Below the pieces are notes generated by a model, which saw only the letters and a program-made list of their open reading frames with translations, searched no databases and had not been told where the DNA came from. Below are positions 1 through 4,744 of a DNA stretch of 64,000 bases, piece after piece. Where the stretch lies: contig NC_017093.1 of assembly GCF_000284295.1 (NCBI RefSeq), positions 682,001 through 746,000 on the forward strand, in the 5' to 3' direction. The number at the start of each line of letters is the position of its first letter. Position 1 is the first letter of the stretch. This DNA is from Actinoplanes missouriensis 431 (GTDB lineage: Bacteria; Actinomycetota; Actinomycetes; Mycobacteriales; Micromonosporaceae). Position numbers and translations under genes: made by a program.

Positions 1-1989
1 CTCGCCGAGGGTTTCCATGGCCTTGCGCTCGGCTTCCGGTTTGAGGCGGATCGGGCGCTGGAGGGGTGGTTTGCTGTCGGTCTCGTCGGGGGTGGGCTCC
101 GATTTCGCGGGCTCGGCCTTCTTACGGGGGCGGCGGGCTCGCTTGGCGGGGGGCTTTGGCGCGGGGGCCGCGTCCTGTGAGGGCTCCGGCTTCTCGGCGG
201 GCGGCTTTTCGGGGGCCTTTGCGGTGGGCTGTTCCGCAGGCTTTTCTGCAGGTTTGTCGGCTGGGGTCTCTGCGGGTTTTTCCTCGGACGCCGGCGCTTC
301 GGCGGGAGGAACTGCGGGGGCCGGCGTTTCGGCTGCGGGCGCGGCGGGGGCCGGGGTCTCGGCCGCAGGTGGAGCGGGAGTCGGGGCTTCGGCCGGAGGA
401 GCGGCTGGGGGTGCGGCTACCTTTGCCACCCCGGTGGCTTTGCGGGCTGAGGGGCGGCGGTGCGAGGCGGGCCGGGGTTCGGGTTGCGGTTCCGGGGTGA
501 CGTTCGCCGGGATGATCCGGTAGCGATAGGTCACCCCGTCGTCGCGAACCACGAAATCGTCCGCGCCGTCCGGCCGGGTCCAGGTGAGGATCATCTGCCC
601 GTACTTCTCGGCGAGCTTCACCAGCGCCGGAAAACTGTCCACGATGACGACCGGTTTGCCGGGCGGGCTGGCCATCGGCTCCACCGGGACCAGCAGGTGG
701 GGGTAGCGGCGCTGGATTTGTTCCCGGTTCTTCAGCGGAACCCGGCGGAAGGCCAGCAGGGCGACCACAGCGATGCCGACCAGCGCGACGAGCAGCGACT
801 TCACCGCCCAGCTACGTGCCTGTCCGGCGGTGAACAGATCCGTGCCGAAAAGCGAGATCTGACGGGGAAAGGTCCCGCCGCCGGATGTCGCGGCCGACCG
901 CTTGACCACCAGACTCTCGGCTCCGCCGAGGAGAGCCAACTGGATGTTCGTGAGGCCGAAGCTCACCGATGGCTCGAAGCTTGATCCGTCGGCATGGCTG
1001 ACTCGCGCGGTGACCGACACCGTGACCGCTCCGATGTCGGTGCCGATGGCCTCGGATGCTCGCTGCGCCCGTTCGTCCAGCCCGTCGAGATCGAGCGACA
1101 CGGTCCCGGTGAAGCGCTGTGCGGAGAACTCCTTGGGCTGAGCCAGCTGAACCGTCGAATGCCAGCCCGTCTGAGTCGAGAGCCGGGCACTCACCTCGAC
1201 AGTTCCGGGCTTTCCGAGATACTCCATCCGCAGGACGACGAACTCCGCGAGATTCCGGTAGATCGGGTCGGGGGAGTACGCCGTGGTGCCGTCGTAGGCG
1301 GCGCTGCGCGGCACGTCCGCAGAGTAGGAGAAGGTCATCGACTCACCGGCCTCTACCGAGGAGTCGGTGGTCTGCGTGGCCGGCCTCATCCAGCCGAGCA
1401 CCCCGAACAGCAGCCCGCAGACGGCCAGCACGACGGAGAGCACGGCGACAACCCAGATCGCCGGGTGGAGCCGTCTGACCGCCTTGGCGACGGTCATCAC
1501 CACCGCCCAGGAGCCGCCTTGGCCGGACATGCTCTTCGTCCTCTTCTTCTGCCGGCCGCGCGGGATGTCCCGGCGGGATCTCACCGCGGCTGCCCGGGTG
1601 CCGACGATCATGAACCCGAACATCCCGAGCGCGGTCGGACTGAGCAGAGGCTTCAGCCACACTCCGCCCTTGGGGACGTGCAAGACCGCGCGGCCGATGA
1701 GCTCGTTCGCGGTGGGTTCGATCGCGTCGATAGCGGGGTTGTTGTCTCCTTGGAAGACATAGCCGGTGAGGGCGTCGCCGCCGATGATGCGGTGGAGTGT
1801 CTCTATGCCTCCGGTCCCATGGTATGCGGCGATCTGCCCGACTTCGTAGGAATCGAACTTGATCAGAAAAACCAGATCATCGGCGTAGTAGGTCGGGTTC
1901 ATGCTGACGCCGTGCGTGATGACGTAGGAGAGTCGCTGGGTGCTGACCGCCCACGCACCAATGGCCGCCATCACGAGGATGGCGGCCAT
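1..1989 (-). CDS. SipW-type signal peptidase I fused to a DUF5305-like membrane protein (3' end outside window)
   Basis: The reading frame stays open from an ATG at 1989 to the window edge (663 codons, no stop), so the C-terminus is missing. Residues 1-17 form a membrane anchor. HGVSMNPT carries the likely catalytic Ser29. TLHRIIG supplies His66 in place of the lysine of ordinary bacterial enzymes, as in SipW/ER-type S26B peptidases, and a GDNN box follows (81-84). A second membrane segment lies near 113-131. From about residue 165 a second module begins, with a TM segment (175-200), an extracellular beta-rich region resembling DUF5305 and another TM (about 393-415). A long Pro/Ala/Glu-rich tail ending in Lys/Arg clusters follows. 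No good ribosome site precedes 1989; a GGAG lies 6 nt before an in-frame ATC at 2013. The upstream secreted protein is its likely substrate. Fusion is seen directly; function is inferred from family. Confidence 0.78.
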   Translation of the reverse strand, partial: MAAILVMAAIGAWAVSTQRLSYVITHGVSMNPTYYADDLVFLIKFDSYEVGQIAAYHGTGGIETLHRIIGGDALTGYVFQGDNNPAIDAIEPTANELIGRAVLHVPKGGVWLKPLLSPTALGMFGFMIVGTRAAAVRSRRDIPRGRQKKRTKSMSGQGGSWAVVMTVAKAVRRLHPAIWVVAVLSVVLAVCGLLFGVLGWMRPATQTTDSSVEAGESMTFSYSADVPRSAAYDGTTAYSPDPIYRNLAEFVVLRMEYLGKPGTVEVSARLSTQTGWHSTVQLAQPKEFSAQRFTGTVSLDLDGLDERAQRASEAIGTDIGAVTVSVTARVSHADGSSFEPSVSFGLTNIQLALLGGAESLVVKRSAATSGGGTFPRQISLFGTDLFTAGQARSWAVKSLLVALVGIAVVALLAFRRVPLKNREQIQRRYPHLLVPVEPMASPPGKPVVIVDSFPALVKLAEKYGQMILTWTRPDGADDFVVRDDGVTYRYRIIPANVTPEPQPEPRPASHRRPSARKATGVAKVAAPPAAPPAEAPTPAPPAAETPAPAAPAAETPAPAVPPAEAPASEEKPAETPADKPAEKPAEQPTAKAPEKPPAEKPEPSQDAAPAPKPPAKRARRPRKKAEPAKSEPTPDETDSKPPLQRPIRLKPEAERKAMETLGE

Positions 1990-2096: not shown

Positions 2097-2534
2097 TCAG
2101 ATGCCCGGCTGGACCTTGACGTCGAGATCGGTCACCGCGGTCATGTAGCCGGTGGTGGCGTTGCCGACTACGCAGTTCCAGATGGTGGTCGAGCCCCAGG
2201 TGCAGGTGAGGGCCGAGGTCGAGCTCGTCGTGCCGCTGTTGTTCGTGCCCTTCAGCGTTCCGGTGATCACCGACGTGGTGGTGTTCAGCGTCGTGCCGTT
2301 GCTGCCGGCGACGTTGAGGGTGGCGCCGACGACCTTGTTGCCGTCCGTGGCGTCGTAAACCAGGGCAGCCGAGTTGAGCACCGCGCCTTCCACGGTCATC
2401 GTGGTCGTGCCACCACCGGCAATCTTGGTGAAGCCGCCGGAGTTGGTGACGCCCGAGGCGGTGAAGGCGGTGCTTCCGGCCGCGACGACACCAGCGACAG
2501 CGATTCCACCAAGAAGCTGCATCATGTTGCGCAT
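2097..2534 (-). CDS. small secreted Ser/Thr/Gly-rich surface protein, probable SipW substrate
   Basis: 145 residues. The start at 2534 is preceded by GGGGAGAA. An upstream in-frame ATG at 2576 is rejected because it lies inside the riboswitch. The N-terminus is a signal peptide (MRNMMQ, a hydrophobic stretch, then a small-residue region ending in AFTASG), resembling the leader of TasA/camelysin-type proteins processed by SipW. The mature part is low in charge, rich in Gly/Thr/Ser/Val, and has one cysteine pair (ALTCTW and IWNC) near the C-terminus that could form a disulfide. It is the first gene after the riboswitch and is followed 107 nt later by the signal peptidase fusion. I do not recognise a named family; a fibre or surface-layer role is inference. 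Confidence 0.75.
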   Translation of the reverse strand: MRNMMQLLGGIAVAGVVAAGSTAFTASGVTNSGGFTKIAGGGTTTMTVEGAVLNSAALVYDATDGNKVVGATLNVAGSNGTTLNTTTSVITGTLKGTNNSGTTSSTSALTCTWGSTTIWNCVVGNATTGYMTAVTDLDVKVQPGI

Positions 2535-2551
2535 TAAGAAGGTTCTCCCCA

Positions 2552-2630
2552 AGGTCGGTAGCCCAGCCAGCCTCATGGGCTCTGTGGCTTTGCGTCCCCG
2601 GCTTGCGCCGGGTTTGCTCTTGTCGGCCGA
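2552..2630 (-). promoter_or_regulatory. GEMM-I cyclic-dinucleotide riboswitch
   Basis: Read on the minus strand, the conserved core is present in order: GCAAACC, a hairpin capped by a GCAA tetraloop, GGGACGCAAAGCC, a second helix, and GGGCTACCGA. This matches the c-di-GMP-I (GEMM-I) aptamer. The base equivalent to G20 of the Vibrio Vc2 aptamer is A (position 2618), as in GEMM-Ib variants, some of which bind 3',3'-cGAMP. The aptamer ends about 10 nt before the GGGGAGAA ribosome site of the secreted-protein gene, so control of translation is plausible. Confidence 0.88.
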
Positions 2631-2843
2631 GCGGGTTGCTCGATCTCGCTTACGCCAGGTTGTTCGGTCGTGGGCTCCCCGGGCTAAGCGTTAGCAGCCA
2701 CTTTTCCGGCGTCCTTTTCGAGGTTTTCGCGCCTGAGTGCAGCTCGGGTGCTAGAGGGGCGCGCGGCCGTTTTTTCGGGAGGAGAAACCGTGCGCGGCGG
2801 CTGTCCGGGGGACGGTCGCCGCGCGTACCCGGGAAGGGCTTAA

Positions 2844-2857
2844 TACTGCAACGGCAC
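2844..2857 (+). repeat. left terminal inverted repeat of IS701-type element
   Basis: TACTGCAACGGCAC, a perfect inverted match to 4200-4213, preceded directly by the TTAA target duplication. Confidence 0.93.
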
Positions 2858-2858
2858 T

Positions 2859-3023
2859 TCACCTGAGTGGGTAGCCGCGGCGTTTGTAGTGGCTGAGGCG
2901 GGCTTGGTGTTGGCGTCGTCGTCGCCAGCGTGACCACCACCAGATGTGTTTGGGCTGGTGGTGGCGGACGAACAGTGCGGCGAGCAGGCGCCGGATCTCC
3001 GGTACCGTGTAGCCGATCATCAT
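2859..3023 (-). CDS. C-terminal segment of IS701-type transposase in a shifted frame
   Basis: 54 codons. The sequence (TVPEIRRLLAALF, then WWWSRWRRRRQHQARLSHYK) is the conserved basic tail usually continuous with IS701-family transposases. Here it lies in the -1 frame relative to the main ORF. Its ATG overlaps the main ORF's stop as ATGA, so it could be translated by coupling, joined by frameshifting, or be the result of a one-base mutation. The catalytic residues are all in the upstream ORF. Confidence 0.6.
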   Translation of the reverse strand: MMIGYTVPEIRRLLAALFVRHHQPKHIWWWSRWRRRRQHQARLSHYKRRGYPLR

Positions 3024-4156
3024 GTCGTCACCGGTGCTGTTTGCTGTTGCGCGGTCTGGGTCCGGGCGACGACGAGCCAGGCGTAAGCGGCCATCGACAA
3101 GGTGATGTGCGCGTACCAGGCCCGCCAGTCCCGGACCTGGTATTCGTCGAGGCCGGCCTGACCTTTGGCCTGCTGGAAGCATTCCTCAACGGCCCATCGG
3201 GTGCCGGCGATGCGGGCCAGGTCCATCAGCCGGGTCTTCCGCGGGCCGTAGCAGACGTAGTAGGCCAGCTCCCCGGTGTTCATGCTGCGCCGGGCGAGCA
3301 GCCAGTGCCCACGCCCGGGCCGCCAGCAGATGCGGATCGGGATCCGCGCCCACCAATACTCCCGCGGTCCGTGAGCCCCGGGACCGGCCGAGATCCGCGA
3401 CCAGGCCCGGCCCGGCAGCGATGCGATCAGCTCGTCGACGCGGGCGCGGCCCATGCTGGTGGTGACCACGTCGTCGTTGCAGCGGGTCGCCACCACATGC
3501 GGCTGGTCGTGCTCTTCGAGCCAGACCCGCAACGCTTTCGACTGACCGTAGGCCTCGTCCATGGTCACCCACGCCGCCGCAACCCCCGCGGTGAACGCCC
3601 GCTGCAGCATCTGCCGGGCCATCTCAATCTTCGTGGCGAAGCCGACCTCGTCCGGGATCCCTGCCGCCCGGCAGCGATCCCGGTCATCGGTCCACGCCGC
3701 CGGCAGATACAACTGCCGGTCGATCAACGCGTGCCCGCGCGTCGAGCGGTAGGCCAGGAAGACACCGACCTGGCAGTTCTCGATCCGGCCGGCGGTTCCC
3801 GAGTACTGCCGGGCGACCCCGGCGGACTTCACGCCCTTCTTCAGGAACCCGGTGTCATCGATGATCAGCACACCATTCGGATCACCGAGGTGCTCGATCA
3901 CGTAATCCCGGACCTCGTCACGCACGGCGTCGATGTCCCAGTCGGCCCACCGCAGCAGGCGTTGCATCCCGTCCGGTGACAGGTCACCGGCTTGCTCGGC
4001 GAGGGTCCAGCCGTTCTTACGATCGAGGCCGGCGACCAGCCCGGACAGATACTGCCGGGCCCGCCGCCGCGGCTCCGCGCGGGTGAACCGGTCCGCGAAC
4101 CGGGCATGCAACCGGTCCAGTTCACTCGACCACTGATCAAACTCGATCGACGTCAC
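3020..4156 (-). CDS. IS701-family DDE transposase
   Basis: 378 residues. DDE-type transposase that cuts and joins the element ends. Likely catalytic positions are the aspartates in LIIDDTGF and VTMDEAYG and the glutamate in RWAVEECFQQAKGQAGLDEY, all intact. The N-terminal part (FDQWSSELDRLHARFADRF) is typical of the family. The ORF stops shortly before the conserved basic tail, which continues in another frame at 2859-3023, so the element may be slightly damaged. It fills almost all of the IS and is read away from the ribonuclease promoter side. Confidence 0.93.
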   Translation of the reverse strand: MTSIEFDQWSSELDRLHARFADRFTRAEPRRRARQYLSGLVAGLDRKNGWTLAEQAGDLSPDGMQRLLRWADWDIDAVRDEVRDYVIEHLGDPNGVLIIDDTGFLKKGVKSAGVARQYSGTAGRIENCQVGVFLAYRSTRGHALIDRQLYLPAAWTDDRDRCRAAGIPDEVGFATKIEMARQMLQRAFTAGVAAAWVTMDEAYGQSKALRVWLEEHDQPHVVATRCNDDVVTTSMGRARVDELIASLPGRAWSRISAGPGAHGPREYWWARIPIRICWRPGRGHWLLARRSMNTGELAYYVCYGPRKTRLMDLARIAGTRWAVEECFQQAKGQAGLDEYQVRDWRAWYAHITLSMAAYAWLVVARTQTAQQQTAPVTT

Positions 4157-4199
4157 ACAACAGGCAACGAGCCGATCATCTATACGTATCGCCTGCTGA

Positions 4200-4213
4200 G
4201 TGCCGTTGCAGTA
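4200..4213 (+). repeat. right terminal inverted repeat of IS701-type element
   Basis: GTGCCGTTGCAGTA, perfect complement of 2844-2857, followed by the second TTAA target copy at 4214-4217. Confidence 0.93.
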
Positions 4214-4633
4214 TTAAAGCTTGTAGAACGTCACATAGTGGTCGGGGGTGAAGTAGGCGACGCGGGTGCTGCGGTTGACCACGATGCGGTAAGCGTCGCG
4301 GGAGGCGCCCCGGGCGCGGGAGTAGACGTCGTATTCGCCGTAGGAGGCGGACGGGAGCTGGCCCTCGCGGTTGTAGAACGTGCCGCCGGTGTAGTTGTAG
4401 TTGCCGTACGGCCAGGCATACCAGCCGGCGCTCGTCGGCCAGTTGAGGGACTTCCAGCCGTTGTACGCGGTGCGCGCGGCTGAGCAGCGGCTGATCGTGC
4501 AGCTGTTGTAGACCGCGGCCTGGGCAGCGTCGGTGTTGGTCGGGGCTACGACGGCGGGTGCCACCAGTGCCGTGCCGGAGAGGGCGAGGACCAGGGCCAG
4601 GCCGGAGAGTAAGCGGCCGATTCGGGTGATCAT
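4214..4633 (-). CDS. secreted guanyl-specific ribonuclease (barnase/RNase Sa, N1/T1 type)
   Basis: 139 residues; start at 4633 chosen because GGAG lies 7 nt upstream. Residues 1-40 are a signal peptide ending AQAA. The C-terminal half carries the microbial ribonuclease fold: FYNREGQLP, then YGEYDV with likely catalytic Glu100, SRDAYR with Arg112 and Arg116, and DHYVTF with His132, matching the Glu/Arg/Arg/His set of RNase Sa and barnase. Two cysteines (45 and 50) may bond. It should cleave RNA after guanosine outside the cell. The IS701 element is inserted at the stop codon, but the TTAA duplication regenerates TAA, so the protein is unaltered. No barstar-like inhibitor gene is visible nearby. 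Confidence 0.88.
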   Translation of the reverse strand: MITRIGRLLSGLALVLALSGTALVAPAVVAPTNTDAAQAAVYNSCTISRCSAARTAYNGWKSLNWPTSAGWYAWPYGNYNYTGGTFYNREGQLPSASYGEYDVYSRARGASRDAYRIVVNRSTRVAYFTPDHYVTFYKL

Positions 4634-4744
4634 GATCGGACTCCGATGCCGTGGGGGGATTACCCGGACATCGACCATCGTCACCGTGGGGGGAGGGTGG
4701 TGGTACCTCCCGGTCCGATCATTTCACCGGAGTTGGGTAACGCT

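What the first reader, a model, noticed from the sequence alone, without database searches (positions are those of the whole stretch)
2552..2630. GEMM-I riboswitch with A at the ligand-deciding position controls a secreted protein
The aptamer core is intact, but the base aligned with Vc2 G20 is A (position 2618). Published work shows G20A-type (GEMM-Ib) members can bind 3',3'-cGAMP instead of, or as well as, c-di-GMP. An actinobacterial one in front of a surface-type protein would suggest a cyclic-dinucleotide route to cell-surface change.
Basis: partly seen in the sequence, partly recalled or inferred. Interest (0 to 1): 0.82.

Follow-up and report, generated by a model that had tools for sequence, protein, structure and literature searches.

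The report
Riboswitch with changed ligand-choosing base
In the soil bacterium Actinoplanes an RNA switch of the cyclic-di-GMP type sits in front of a secreted surface-type protein, and the one base that helps choose its signal has drifted between G, A and C among related species while the rest of the pocket stayed almost unchanged; no recognisable maker of the rarer signal cGAMP was found in this genome, so cGAMP sensing is less likely than c-di-GMP sensing with a retuned pocket.

Summary
A GEMM-I (c-di-GMP-I type) aptamer lies on the minus strand at 2627-2553 (RF03167 63.1 bits, RF01051 60.3 bits); the Vc2-G20 position is A (2618), with A47 and C92 intact. The genome is an Actinoplanes. In its genus, 84 aptamers in 62 of 67 genomes fall into two groups. 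Group A (61) has G20 throughout. Group B (23, the window's kind) precedes a 130-150-residue secreted protein and an archaeal/SipW-like signal peptidase. Only in group B does base 20 vary: 12 G, 6 A, 5 C, the rest of the pocket being nearly invariant. The A is thus one state of a natural G/A/C series. The cGAMP reading is weakened: 0 of 55 GGDEF domains here carry the Ser of cGAMP-making (Hypr) cyclases, no SMODS nucleotidyltransferase was found, and P2 opens with a c-di-GMP-like G21-C46 pair. In one related switch, A or C at this base had no large effect on c-di-GMP binding; in Vc2, pocket mutants are reported to bind it more weakly. Best reading: a c-di-GMP-class switch with a relaxed or retuned pocket beside the ribosome-binding site. 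Ligand, sign and specificity remain untested.

The parts
2553..2627 (-). GEMM-I / c-di-GMP-I type riboswitch aptamer (group B)
   Evidence: Rfam RF03167 63.1 bits, RF01051 60.3 bits; covariation
2618..2618 (-). A at the position of Vc2 G20
   Evidence: covariance alignment; alignment of 23 orthologues, column 10: 12 G, 6 A, 5 C
2591..2591 (-). A47 equivalent, A
   Evidence: A in 22 of 23, G in L162
2558..2558 (-). C92 equivalent, C
   Evidence: C in 23 of 23
2545..2550 (-). Shine-Dalgarno-like GGGGAG, two bases after the aptamer's 3' end, 10 bases before the ATG
   Evidence: sequence; GGGGA at this place in 19 of 23 orthologues by my count
2097..2534 (-). gene 1: 145-residue secreted-type protein, conserved signal peptide, hypervariable, predicted all-beta mature part
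   Evidence: translation; orthologues; structure model mean pLDDT 71
1..1989 (-). gene 2 (706 aa, runs 132 bases beyond the window): archaeal-type signal peptidase I-like domain + DUF5305 + Pro/Ala-rich tail
   Evidence: TIGR02228 E 1.8e-8 (34.4 bits, below its cut-off 51.85), PF17231 E 3.8e-9; present behind 23 of 23 group B aptamers (22, L068)
2628..2642 (-). small hairpin CGAGC-N5-GCTCG abutting the aptamer's 5' end
   Evidence: by eye: GAGC...GCTC in 11 of 11 A20/C20 copies, not seen in the 12 G20 copies
2732..2753 (-). conserved upstream motif TAGCACC-N9-CTCAGG, possible promoter or operator
   Evidence: regex found in 17 of 23 loci 110-130 bases upstream
2745..2762 (-). putative TcrA box, 12 of 14 letters
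   Evidence: published box 5'-nnGCA(A/C)CCG-n4-GCA(A/C)CCGn-3' (PMC12691653, passage) scored; 9 of 300 simulated sequences reach it
2792..2824 (-). terminator-like hairpin between the upstream gene and the motif (by eye; no terminator scan run)
   Evidence: sequence and orthologue alignment

Best explanation
It is a genuine, maintained class-I cyclic-dinucleotide (GEMM-I) riboswitch of an Actinoplanes lineage (group B) whose ligand-deciding base 20 has changed from a probably ancestral G to A and, in one sub-lineage, to C. The most likely working ligand is still c-di-GMP, bound by a relaxed or retuned pocket with altered affinity or selectivity; G21-C46, A47 and C92 are kept. Binding would set P1, whose 3' strand stops two bases before the Shine-Dalgarno sequence, and so control translation of gene 1 (a secreted-type, hypervariable, predicted all-beta protein) and probably gene 2 (a SipW-like signal peptidase that may process it). 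Transcription may come from a conserved upstream promoter, perhaps under the sporangium regulator TcrA. Shown here: aptamer, base 20 variation, gene context, covariation, cyclase inventory. Inferred: ligand, translational mode, operon, processing, TcrA link. Not determined: ON or OFF.
For: Aptamer and A20. Base 20 in orthologues 12 G / 6 A / 5 C of 23, rest of the core almost invariant. Group A copies: G20 in 61 of 61. Outside Actinoplanes/Paractinoplanes, an exact core pattern has G20 in 54 of 57 matches, A in 2, C in 1 (of 68 matches in all), and the same pairing with a related secreted protein in Nakamurella and in Frankiales- and Mycobacterium-labelled MAGs has G20. GGDEF-rich genomes (56, 68, 118 matches); selectivity residue read in 55 of 55 domains here, 30 of 68 matches in another A20 genome, 30 of 118 in a C20 genome: no Ser/Thr. 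SMODS 0 here, 1 of 11 A20/C20 genomes. In Cd1 the base equivalent to G20 changed to A or C: no large effect, called a selectivity factor rather than a hard filter (PMC9262584 passages). Gene 1 and gene 2 behind 23 of 23 group B aptamers.
Against: In Geobacter a single A20G change converts a cGAMP switch to c-di-GMP (PMC6456294 passages), so base 20 can decide. A G20A GEMM-I aptamer binds cGAMP and is used as a cGAMP sensor (PMC6274999 and PMC11352751 passages). Vc2 mutants at G20/C92 are reported to bind c-di-GMP more weakly (PMC9049102 passages; the figure given, 4900 against 0.011 nM, is for the double mutant). Absence of a known cGAMP synthase is not proof: only the Asp/Ser signature and one SMODS family were tested. 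Constrained folding showed no consistent change of Shine-Dalgarno exposure with P1 (21 of 23 leaders testable), so the expression platform is unproven. P1 pairs poorly in the alignment (68.3% of cells).
Confidence: 0.55

Rival explanations
1. It is a cGAMP (GEMM-Ib-like) riboswitch: A20 pairs with the adenine of 3',3'-cGAMP, and an unrecognised cyclase supplies it. C20, with the same donor/acceptor pattern as A, would read the same base (inference).
For: A20; published A20/G20 swap changes specificity (PMC6456294); G20A GEMM-I used as a cGAMP sensor (PMC11352751 table). A20 or C20 kept in 11 of 23 orthologues despite large protein divergence.
Against: No Hypr-type Ser in any of the 55 domains read here nor in the 60 read in two other genomes, and no SMODS here; P2 opens with G21-C46, not the C15-G40 described for the cGAMP switch.
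Confidence: 0.2
2. The A20/C20 switches have become specific for some other dinucleotide or a linear product (a new specificity).
For: I found no natural C20 class in the passages I could read; the change recurs (four changes on the gene-2 tree; C20 also in a Pseudonocardiales MAG before a related secreted protein).
Against: No candidate synthase or ligand; the C mutant of Cd1 kept c-di-GMP binding.
Confidence: 0.13
3. The A20/C20 copies are ligand-blind or decaying riboswitches, kept only as a 5' leader.
For: The changed base contacts the ligand (recalled); P1 is weak in many copies; Vc2 pocket mutants bind more weakly.
Against: Core otherwise near-invariant over much protein divergence; compensatory P3 changes.
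Confidence: 0.12

Closest known systems
c-di-GMP-I (GEMM-I) riboswitch, RF01051
   Same: fold, P2/P3 core, A47, C92, G21-C46, position before a surface/extracellular-type gene
   Different: A (or C in orthologues) in place of G20
c-di-GMP-I-GGC variant, RF03167
   Same: highest-scoring Rfam family (63.1 bits), overall sequence
   Different: model consensus has G at positions 20 and 47; window has A at both
GEMM-Ib cGAMP riboswitches of Geobacter
   Same: A at position 20, C92
   Different: first P2 pair G-C instead of C-G (as described in PMC6274999); no Hypr cyclase found; different genes
TasA/CalY-SipW secreted fibre systems of Bacillus (recalled; papers seen only as a listing)
   Same: small secreted beta-rich protein next to a signal peptidase of the archaeal/SipW kind
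   Different: no match to TasA in the rows listed; peptidase fused to DUF5305; riboswitch in front

Membership tests
c-di-GMP-I / GEMM-I (RF01051) | covariance-model score above gathering | tested here: met
   60.3 bits against 35
c-di-GMP-I / GEMM-I (RF01051) | G at position 20 (typical c-di-GMP members) | tested here: not met
   A at 2618
c-di-GMP-I / GEMM-I (RF01051) | A47 and C92 | tested here: met
   A 2591, C 2558
c-di-GMP-I / GEMM-I (RF01051) | binds c-di-GMP | not testable with these tools
   needs a binding assay
c-di-GMP-I-GGC (RF03167) | score above gathering | tested here: met
   63.1 against 59
c-di-GMP-I-GGC (RF03167) | G20, G47, C92 (read from the model consensus; meaning of the name recalled) | tested here: not met
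   window has A, A, C
GEMM-Ib cGAMP riboswitch | A at position 20 | tested here: met
GEMM-Ib cGAMP riboswitch | P2 opening with a C-G pair (C15-G40 of the crystallised cGAMP switch; equivalence to 21-46 inferred; not known to define the whole class) | tested here: not met
   G21-C46 in 23 of 23; PMC6274999 section 3
GEMM-Ib cGAMP riboswitch | Hypr GGDEF (Ser at selectivity position) in the same genome | tested here: not met
   0 of 55 domains
GEMM-Ib cGAMP riboswitch | prefers cGAMP | not testable with these tools
   needs a binding assay
SipW/archaeal-type signal peptidase | signal peptidase I domain with GxSMxP and LHR motifs | tested here: inconclusive
   TIGR02228 E 1.8e-8 but 34.4 bits against a cut-off of 51.85; motifs seen in 23 of 23, their catalytic meaning recalled
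TasA/CalY secreted fibre protein | TasA-like fold | tested here: inconclusive
   best Foldseek E 0.046, best Z 7.1, both to H. pylori CrdA; no Pfam match for gene 1

The most novel reading that the evidence does not exclude
Within one bacterial genus the same riboswitch, before the same gene, has moved its ligand-deciding base from G to A to C, giving a natural series of riboswitches that read a cyclic dinucleotide other than c-di-GMP, supplied by an actinobacterial synthase not yet recognised, while a second riboswitch in the same cell stays on c-di-GMP.
Probability: 0.2. Interest if true: 0.85.

Novelty: new variant of a known kind. Interest (0 to 1): 0.52.

Why it matters
Riboswitch specificity changes are usually reconstructed between distant classes. 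Here 23 orthologous switches in front of one gene family carry G, A or C at the base that discriminates cyclic dinucleotides, with the rest of the pocket held nearly constant, and 22 of those 23 genomes also hold a fixed G20 switch as internal control. That makes the question 'does base 20 set ligand identity or only affinity?' directly testable on natural RNAs. It also ties cyclic-dinucleotide signalling to a hypervariable secreted-type protein next to a signal peptidase in a sporangium-forming genus with 56 to 118 GGDEF matches in the three genomes examined.

Tried and rejected
cGAMP as the default ligand was demoted after the GGDEF and SMODS inventories. Shine-Dalgarno sequestration by P1 was tested by constrained folding (23 leaders, P1 could be imposed in 21) and gave no consistent direction; the sign is left open. 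MFE folds of 170 bases were not consistent. Gene 1 as a named family: no Pfam hit for it, and among the 15 aligned members nine families each hit by one member (best E 0.00063); a weak repeat-family hit below cut-off in NCBIfam; one chance-level PDB sequence hit (E 0.074); no Foldseek match at E 0.001 and no Z of 8 or more. TasA does not appear in the listed rows, which excludes nothing. Published data on this operon: the tags AMIS_61 to AMIS_65 were looked for in the main text of four A. missouriensis papers; the only hit was the unrelated AMIS_63160. The link to A. missouriensis 431 rests on the genome length 8,773,466 and my recall of that genome's size; not verified. Primary papers on A20/GEMM-Ib, riboswitch variants and adenine protonation are not held, so those points are recalled or from citing papers.

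The tree of gene 2 has 5 of 20 inner branches strongly supported, so the number and order of changes at base 20 (4 by parsimony) is soft. The TcrA-box test was chosen after seeing the sequence, scored one strand only, and uses first-order Markov simulation as control; 15 of 23 loci score 12 or more of 14, 8 do not, and the best sites are not all in the same register. A first GGDEF motif script found nothing because of a wrong pattern and was replaced. A first aptamer regex missed 11 loci, which were read.

Full report
Observation. The window holds a single Rfam match at gathering level: minus strand 2627-2553, RF03167 c-di-GMP-I-GGC, 63.1 bits, E 1.6e-12; RF01051 gives 60.3 bits there. In the covariance alignment the base equivalent to Vc2 G20 is A, at 2618, while the A47 (2591) and C92 (2558) equivalents are kept (numbering of Vc2 recalled). 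RF03167 is the better-scoring family, but its consensus has G at positions 20 and 47 and the window has A at both, so the GGC label reflects overall similarity (inference).

Genome and distribution. The window is G000:C1:682001-746000 of an 8,773,466-base one-contig genome; named records with the same kind of element and gene are Actinoplanes, and the length is the one I recall for A. missouriensis 431. Among 200 genomes of 44 genera of the family only this genus has matches, with the stricter filters used for large searches. In the genus, 62 of 67 genomes have matches, 84 places in all. By sequence they fall into group A (61 places) and group B (23 places, the window's kind); 22 of the 23 group B genomes also have a group A copy. 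I read base 20 in all 84.

Base 20. Group A is G in 61 of 61. Group B is G in 12, A in 6 (window, L156, L063, L166, L064, L167), C in 5 (L068, L159, L161, L067, L066) of 23. In the same 23, the columns for G21, C22, the AAACCCG of P2, C46, C92 and C93 do not vary, and A47 varies once (L162, G). Base 20 is not the only changing base near the ligand: in the 5' P1/junction strand columns 1-7 and 9 vary to differing degrees (column 8 does not), column 4, which would be G14 (listed as a key residue in PMC9049102, passage), is C in 2 of 23, and the P1 3' strand comes in two forms (ACCGA with 11 of 11 A20/C20 copies and 3 of 12 G20 copies, ACCACCG with 9 of 12 G20 copies). Covariation: 18 cells and 5 pairs with changes on both sides; score 0.161 against a shuffled mean of 0.101, 0 of 500 as high; pairs changed on both sides 5 against 2.5 (5 of 500 as high); further pair types 9 against 9.6 (443 of 500 as high); sliding partners by 1-3 columns drops the score to 0.034 or less. 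P1 is weak: 68.3% of cells paired.

History. A tree of the gene-2 proteins of the 23 loci needs 4 changes of base 20; the five C copies form one side of a branch (support 85/79); 5 of 20 inner branches are well supported. An exact core pattern in genome contigs gave 68 stretches: base 20 was G in 59, A in 5, C in 4. Of these, 11 are Actinoplanes/Paractinoplanes (5 G, 3 A, 3 C); the other 57 are 54 G, 2 A (Cryobacterium, Rudaea) and 1 C (a Pseudonocardiales MAG). The MAG's C20 switch precedes a protein of the gene 1 kind, as do G20 switches in Nakamurella and in Frankiales- and Mycobacterium-labelled MAGs (23-34% identity to gene 1, kinship judged by the shared signal peptide and alignment); the Cryobacterium and Rudaea A20 copies do not show such a gene. 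G ancestral, A and C derived, is the simplest reading (inference).

Genes. Two bases after the aptamer comes GGGGAG (2545-2550), then ATG at 2534. Gene 1 (2534-2097) is a 145-residue protein with a signal-peptide-like start (by eye, no signal predictor run). Across the 23 orthologues (130-150 residues) the first 28 residues have median identity 79%, the mature part 26%, and the first 150 residues of gene 2 66% (253 pairs): the mature protein is hypervariable. Its model is all-beta (mean pLDDT 71, residues 11-47 under 50) without a confident match. The profile finds one copy in this genome. Gene 2 (1989 to 132 bases beyond the window) resembles archaeal signal peptidase I (TIGR02228 E 1.8e-8, below cut-off) and has DUF5305; it follows gene 1 in 23 of 23 (22 by regex, L068 by reading). 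The GxSMxP and LHR motifs suggest a SipW/ER-type enzyme (recalled), hence a TasA/SipW-like pair by analogy only. The genome's group A switch precedes a 983-residue Calx-beta protein with a signal-like start.

Ligand. The genome has 56 GGDEF matches, two of them halves of one domain, so 55 domains. Hypr cyclases carry Ser where canonical ones carry Asp (PMC6456294 passages). I read that residue in all 55: 44 by motif, 6 by eye and 5 more by eye; 54 are Asp, 1 is degenerate (Glu), 0 Ser/Thr. In G140 (A20), 30 of 68 matches, and in G221 (C20), 30 of 118, were read, the best-scoring ones: all Asp. SMODS was found in 7 of 67 genomes, not in the window's, and in 1 of 11 A20/C20 genomes. PMC9262584 (passages) reports that mutating the equivalent base of Cd1 to A and C has no large effect, calls the base a selectivity factor rather than a hard filter, and cites cGAMP switches binding c-di-GMP through a protonated adenine. 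Against this, A20G converts a Geobacter switch from cGAMP to c-di-GMP (PMC6456294 passages), G20A GEMM-I serves as a cGAMP sensor (PMC11352751 table), and Vc2 pocket mutants bind c-di-GMP more weakly (PMC9049102 passages). The cGAMP switch is described with P2 C15-G40 (PMC6274999 section 3), where all 23 here have G21-C46. My reading: c-di-GMP is the likeliest working ligand, with altered affinity or selectivity. Chemically A and C share an amino donor next to a ring-nitrogen acceptor, so they could read the same ligand edge, an adenine or, after protonation, a guanine (inference); this keeps the novel reading open.

Control. The aptamer runs almost directly into the Shine-Dalgarno sequence, leaving no room for a terminator between aptamer and gene, so translational control is likely, but constrained folding did not give a consistent sign. 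Upstream lies a conserved motif TA(G/A)CAC-N9-13-CT(A/C)A in 17 of 23 loci. Scoring the published TcrA box (PMC12691653 passage) gave 12 or more of 14 in 15 of 23 loci, 14 of 14 in two; the window scores 12, reached by 9 of 300 simulated sequences. TcrA governs sporangium formation and dehiscence (same passage), so the operon may belong to sporangium biology; this is a lead only.

Novelty. A search for Actinoplanes, riboswitch and c-di-GMP together gave 3 papers: in PMC11626248 the only occurrence is a reference title; the other two were seen only in the listing. A search for GEMM-Ib gave 4 papers, none with Actinobacteria in its title or in the part of the abstract shown. None of the passages I read describes a natural C at this base; many key papers are not held. 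I rate it a new variant of a known kind.

Noticed in passing
window 2840-4217: Insertion-sequence-like element: identical 19-base inverted ends (2840-2858 and 4199-4217) around a 378-aa transposase-like ORF (3020-4156, minus; family not scanned). Its right end overlaps the stop codon of the upstream secreted-type gene (4214-4684, minus) and it separates that gene from the terminator-like hairpin; the conserved motif before the riboswitch is left intact.
   Followed up: partly
window 2732-2762: Conserved upstream motif (17 of 23 loci) overlapping a putative TcrA box; a further CTTA-N~15-CCGAA element is conserved nearer the aptamer and could be a FliA-type promoter (recalled consensus, untested).
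   Followed up: partly
L071, L073, L177, L192 (group A) and L162 (group B): Aptamers with G20, G47 and C92, i.e. of the GGC type, occur in the same genus, so the A47 position also drifts.
   Followed up: no
L001 / G000:C1:7146166-7146087: Second riboswitch of this genome, G20, before a 983-aa secreted-type Calx-beta protein; its 3' end runs into the AAGGAG ribosome-binding site.
   Followed up: partly
window 2097-2534 and 22 orthologues: Gene 1 has a well-kept signal peptide (median 79% identity) and a mature part at 26% in one genus, which suggests diversifying selection or swapping of the exposed domain.
   Followed up: partly
G000, G140, G221: Very large GGDEF sets: 56, 68 and 118 matches per genome.
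   Followed up: no
L121, L143 (record WNZI01, named Vibrio cholerae 35D): These carry Arthrobacter-like aptamers, so the record is probably contaminated or mislabelled.
   Followed up: no
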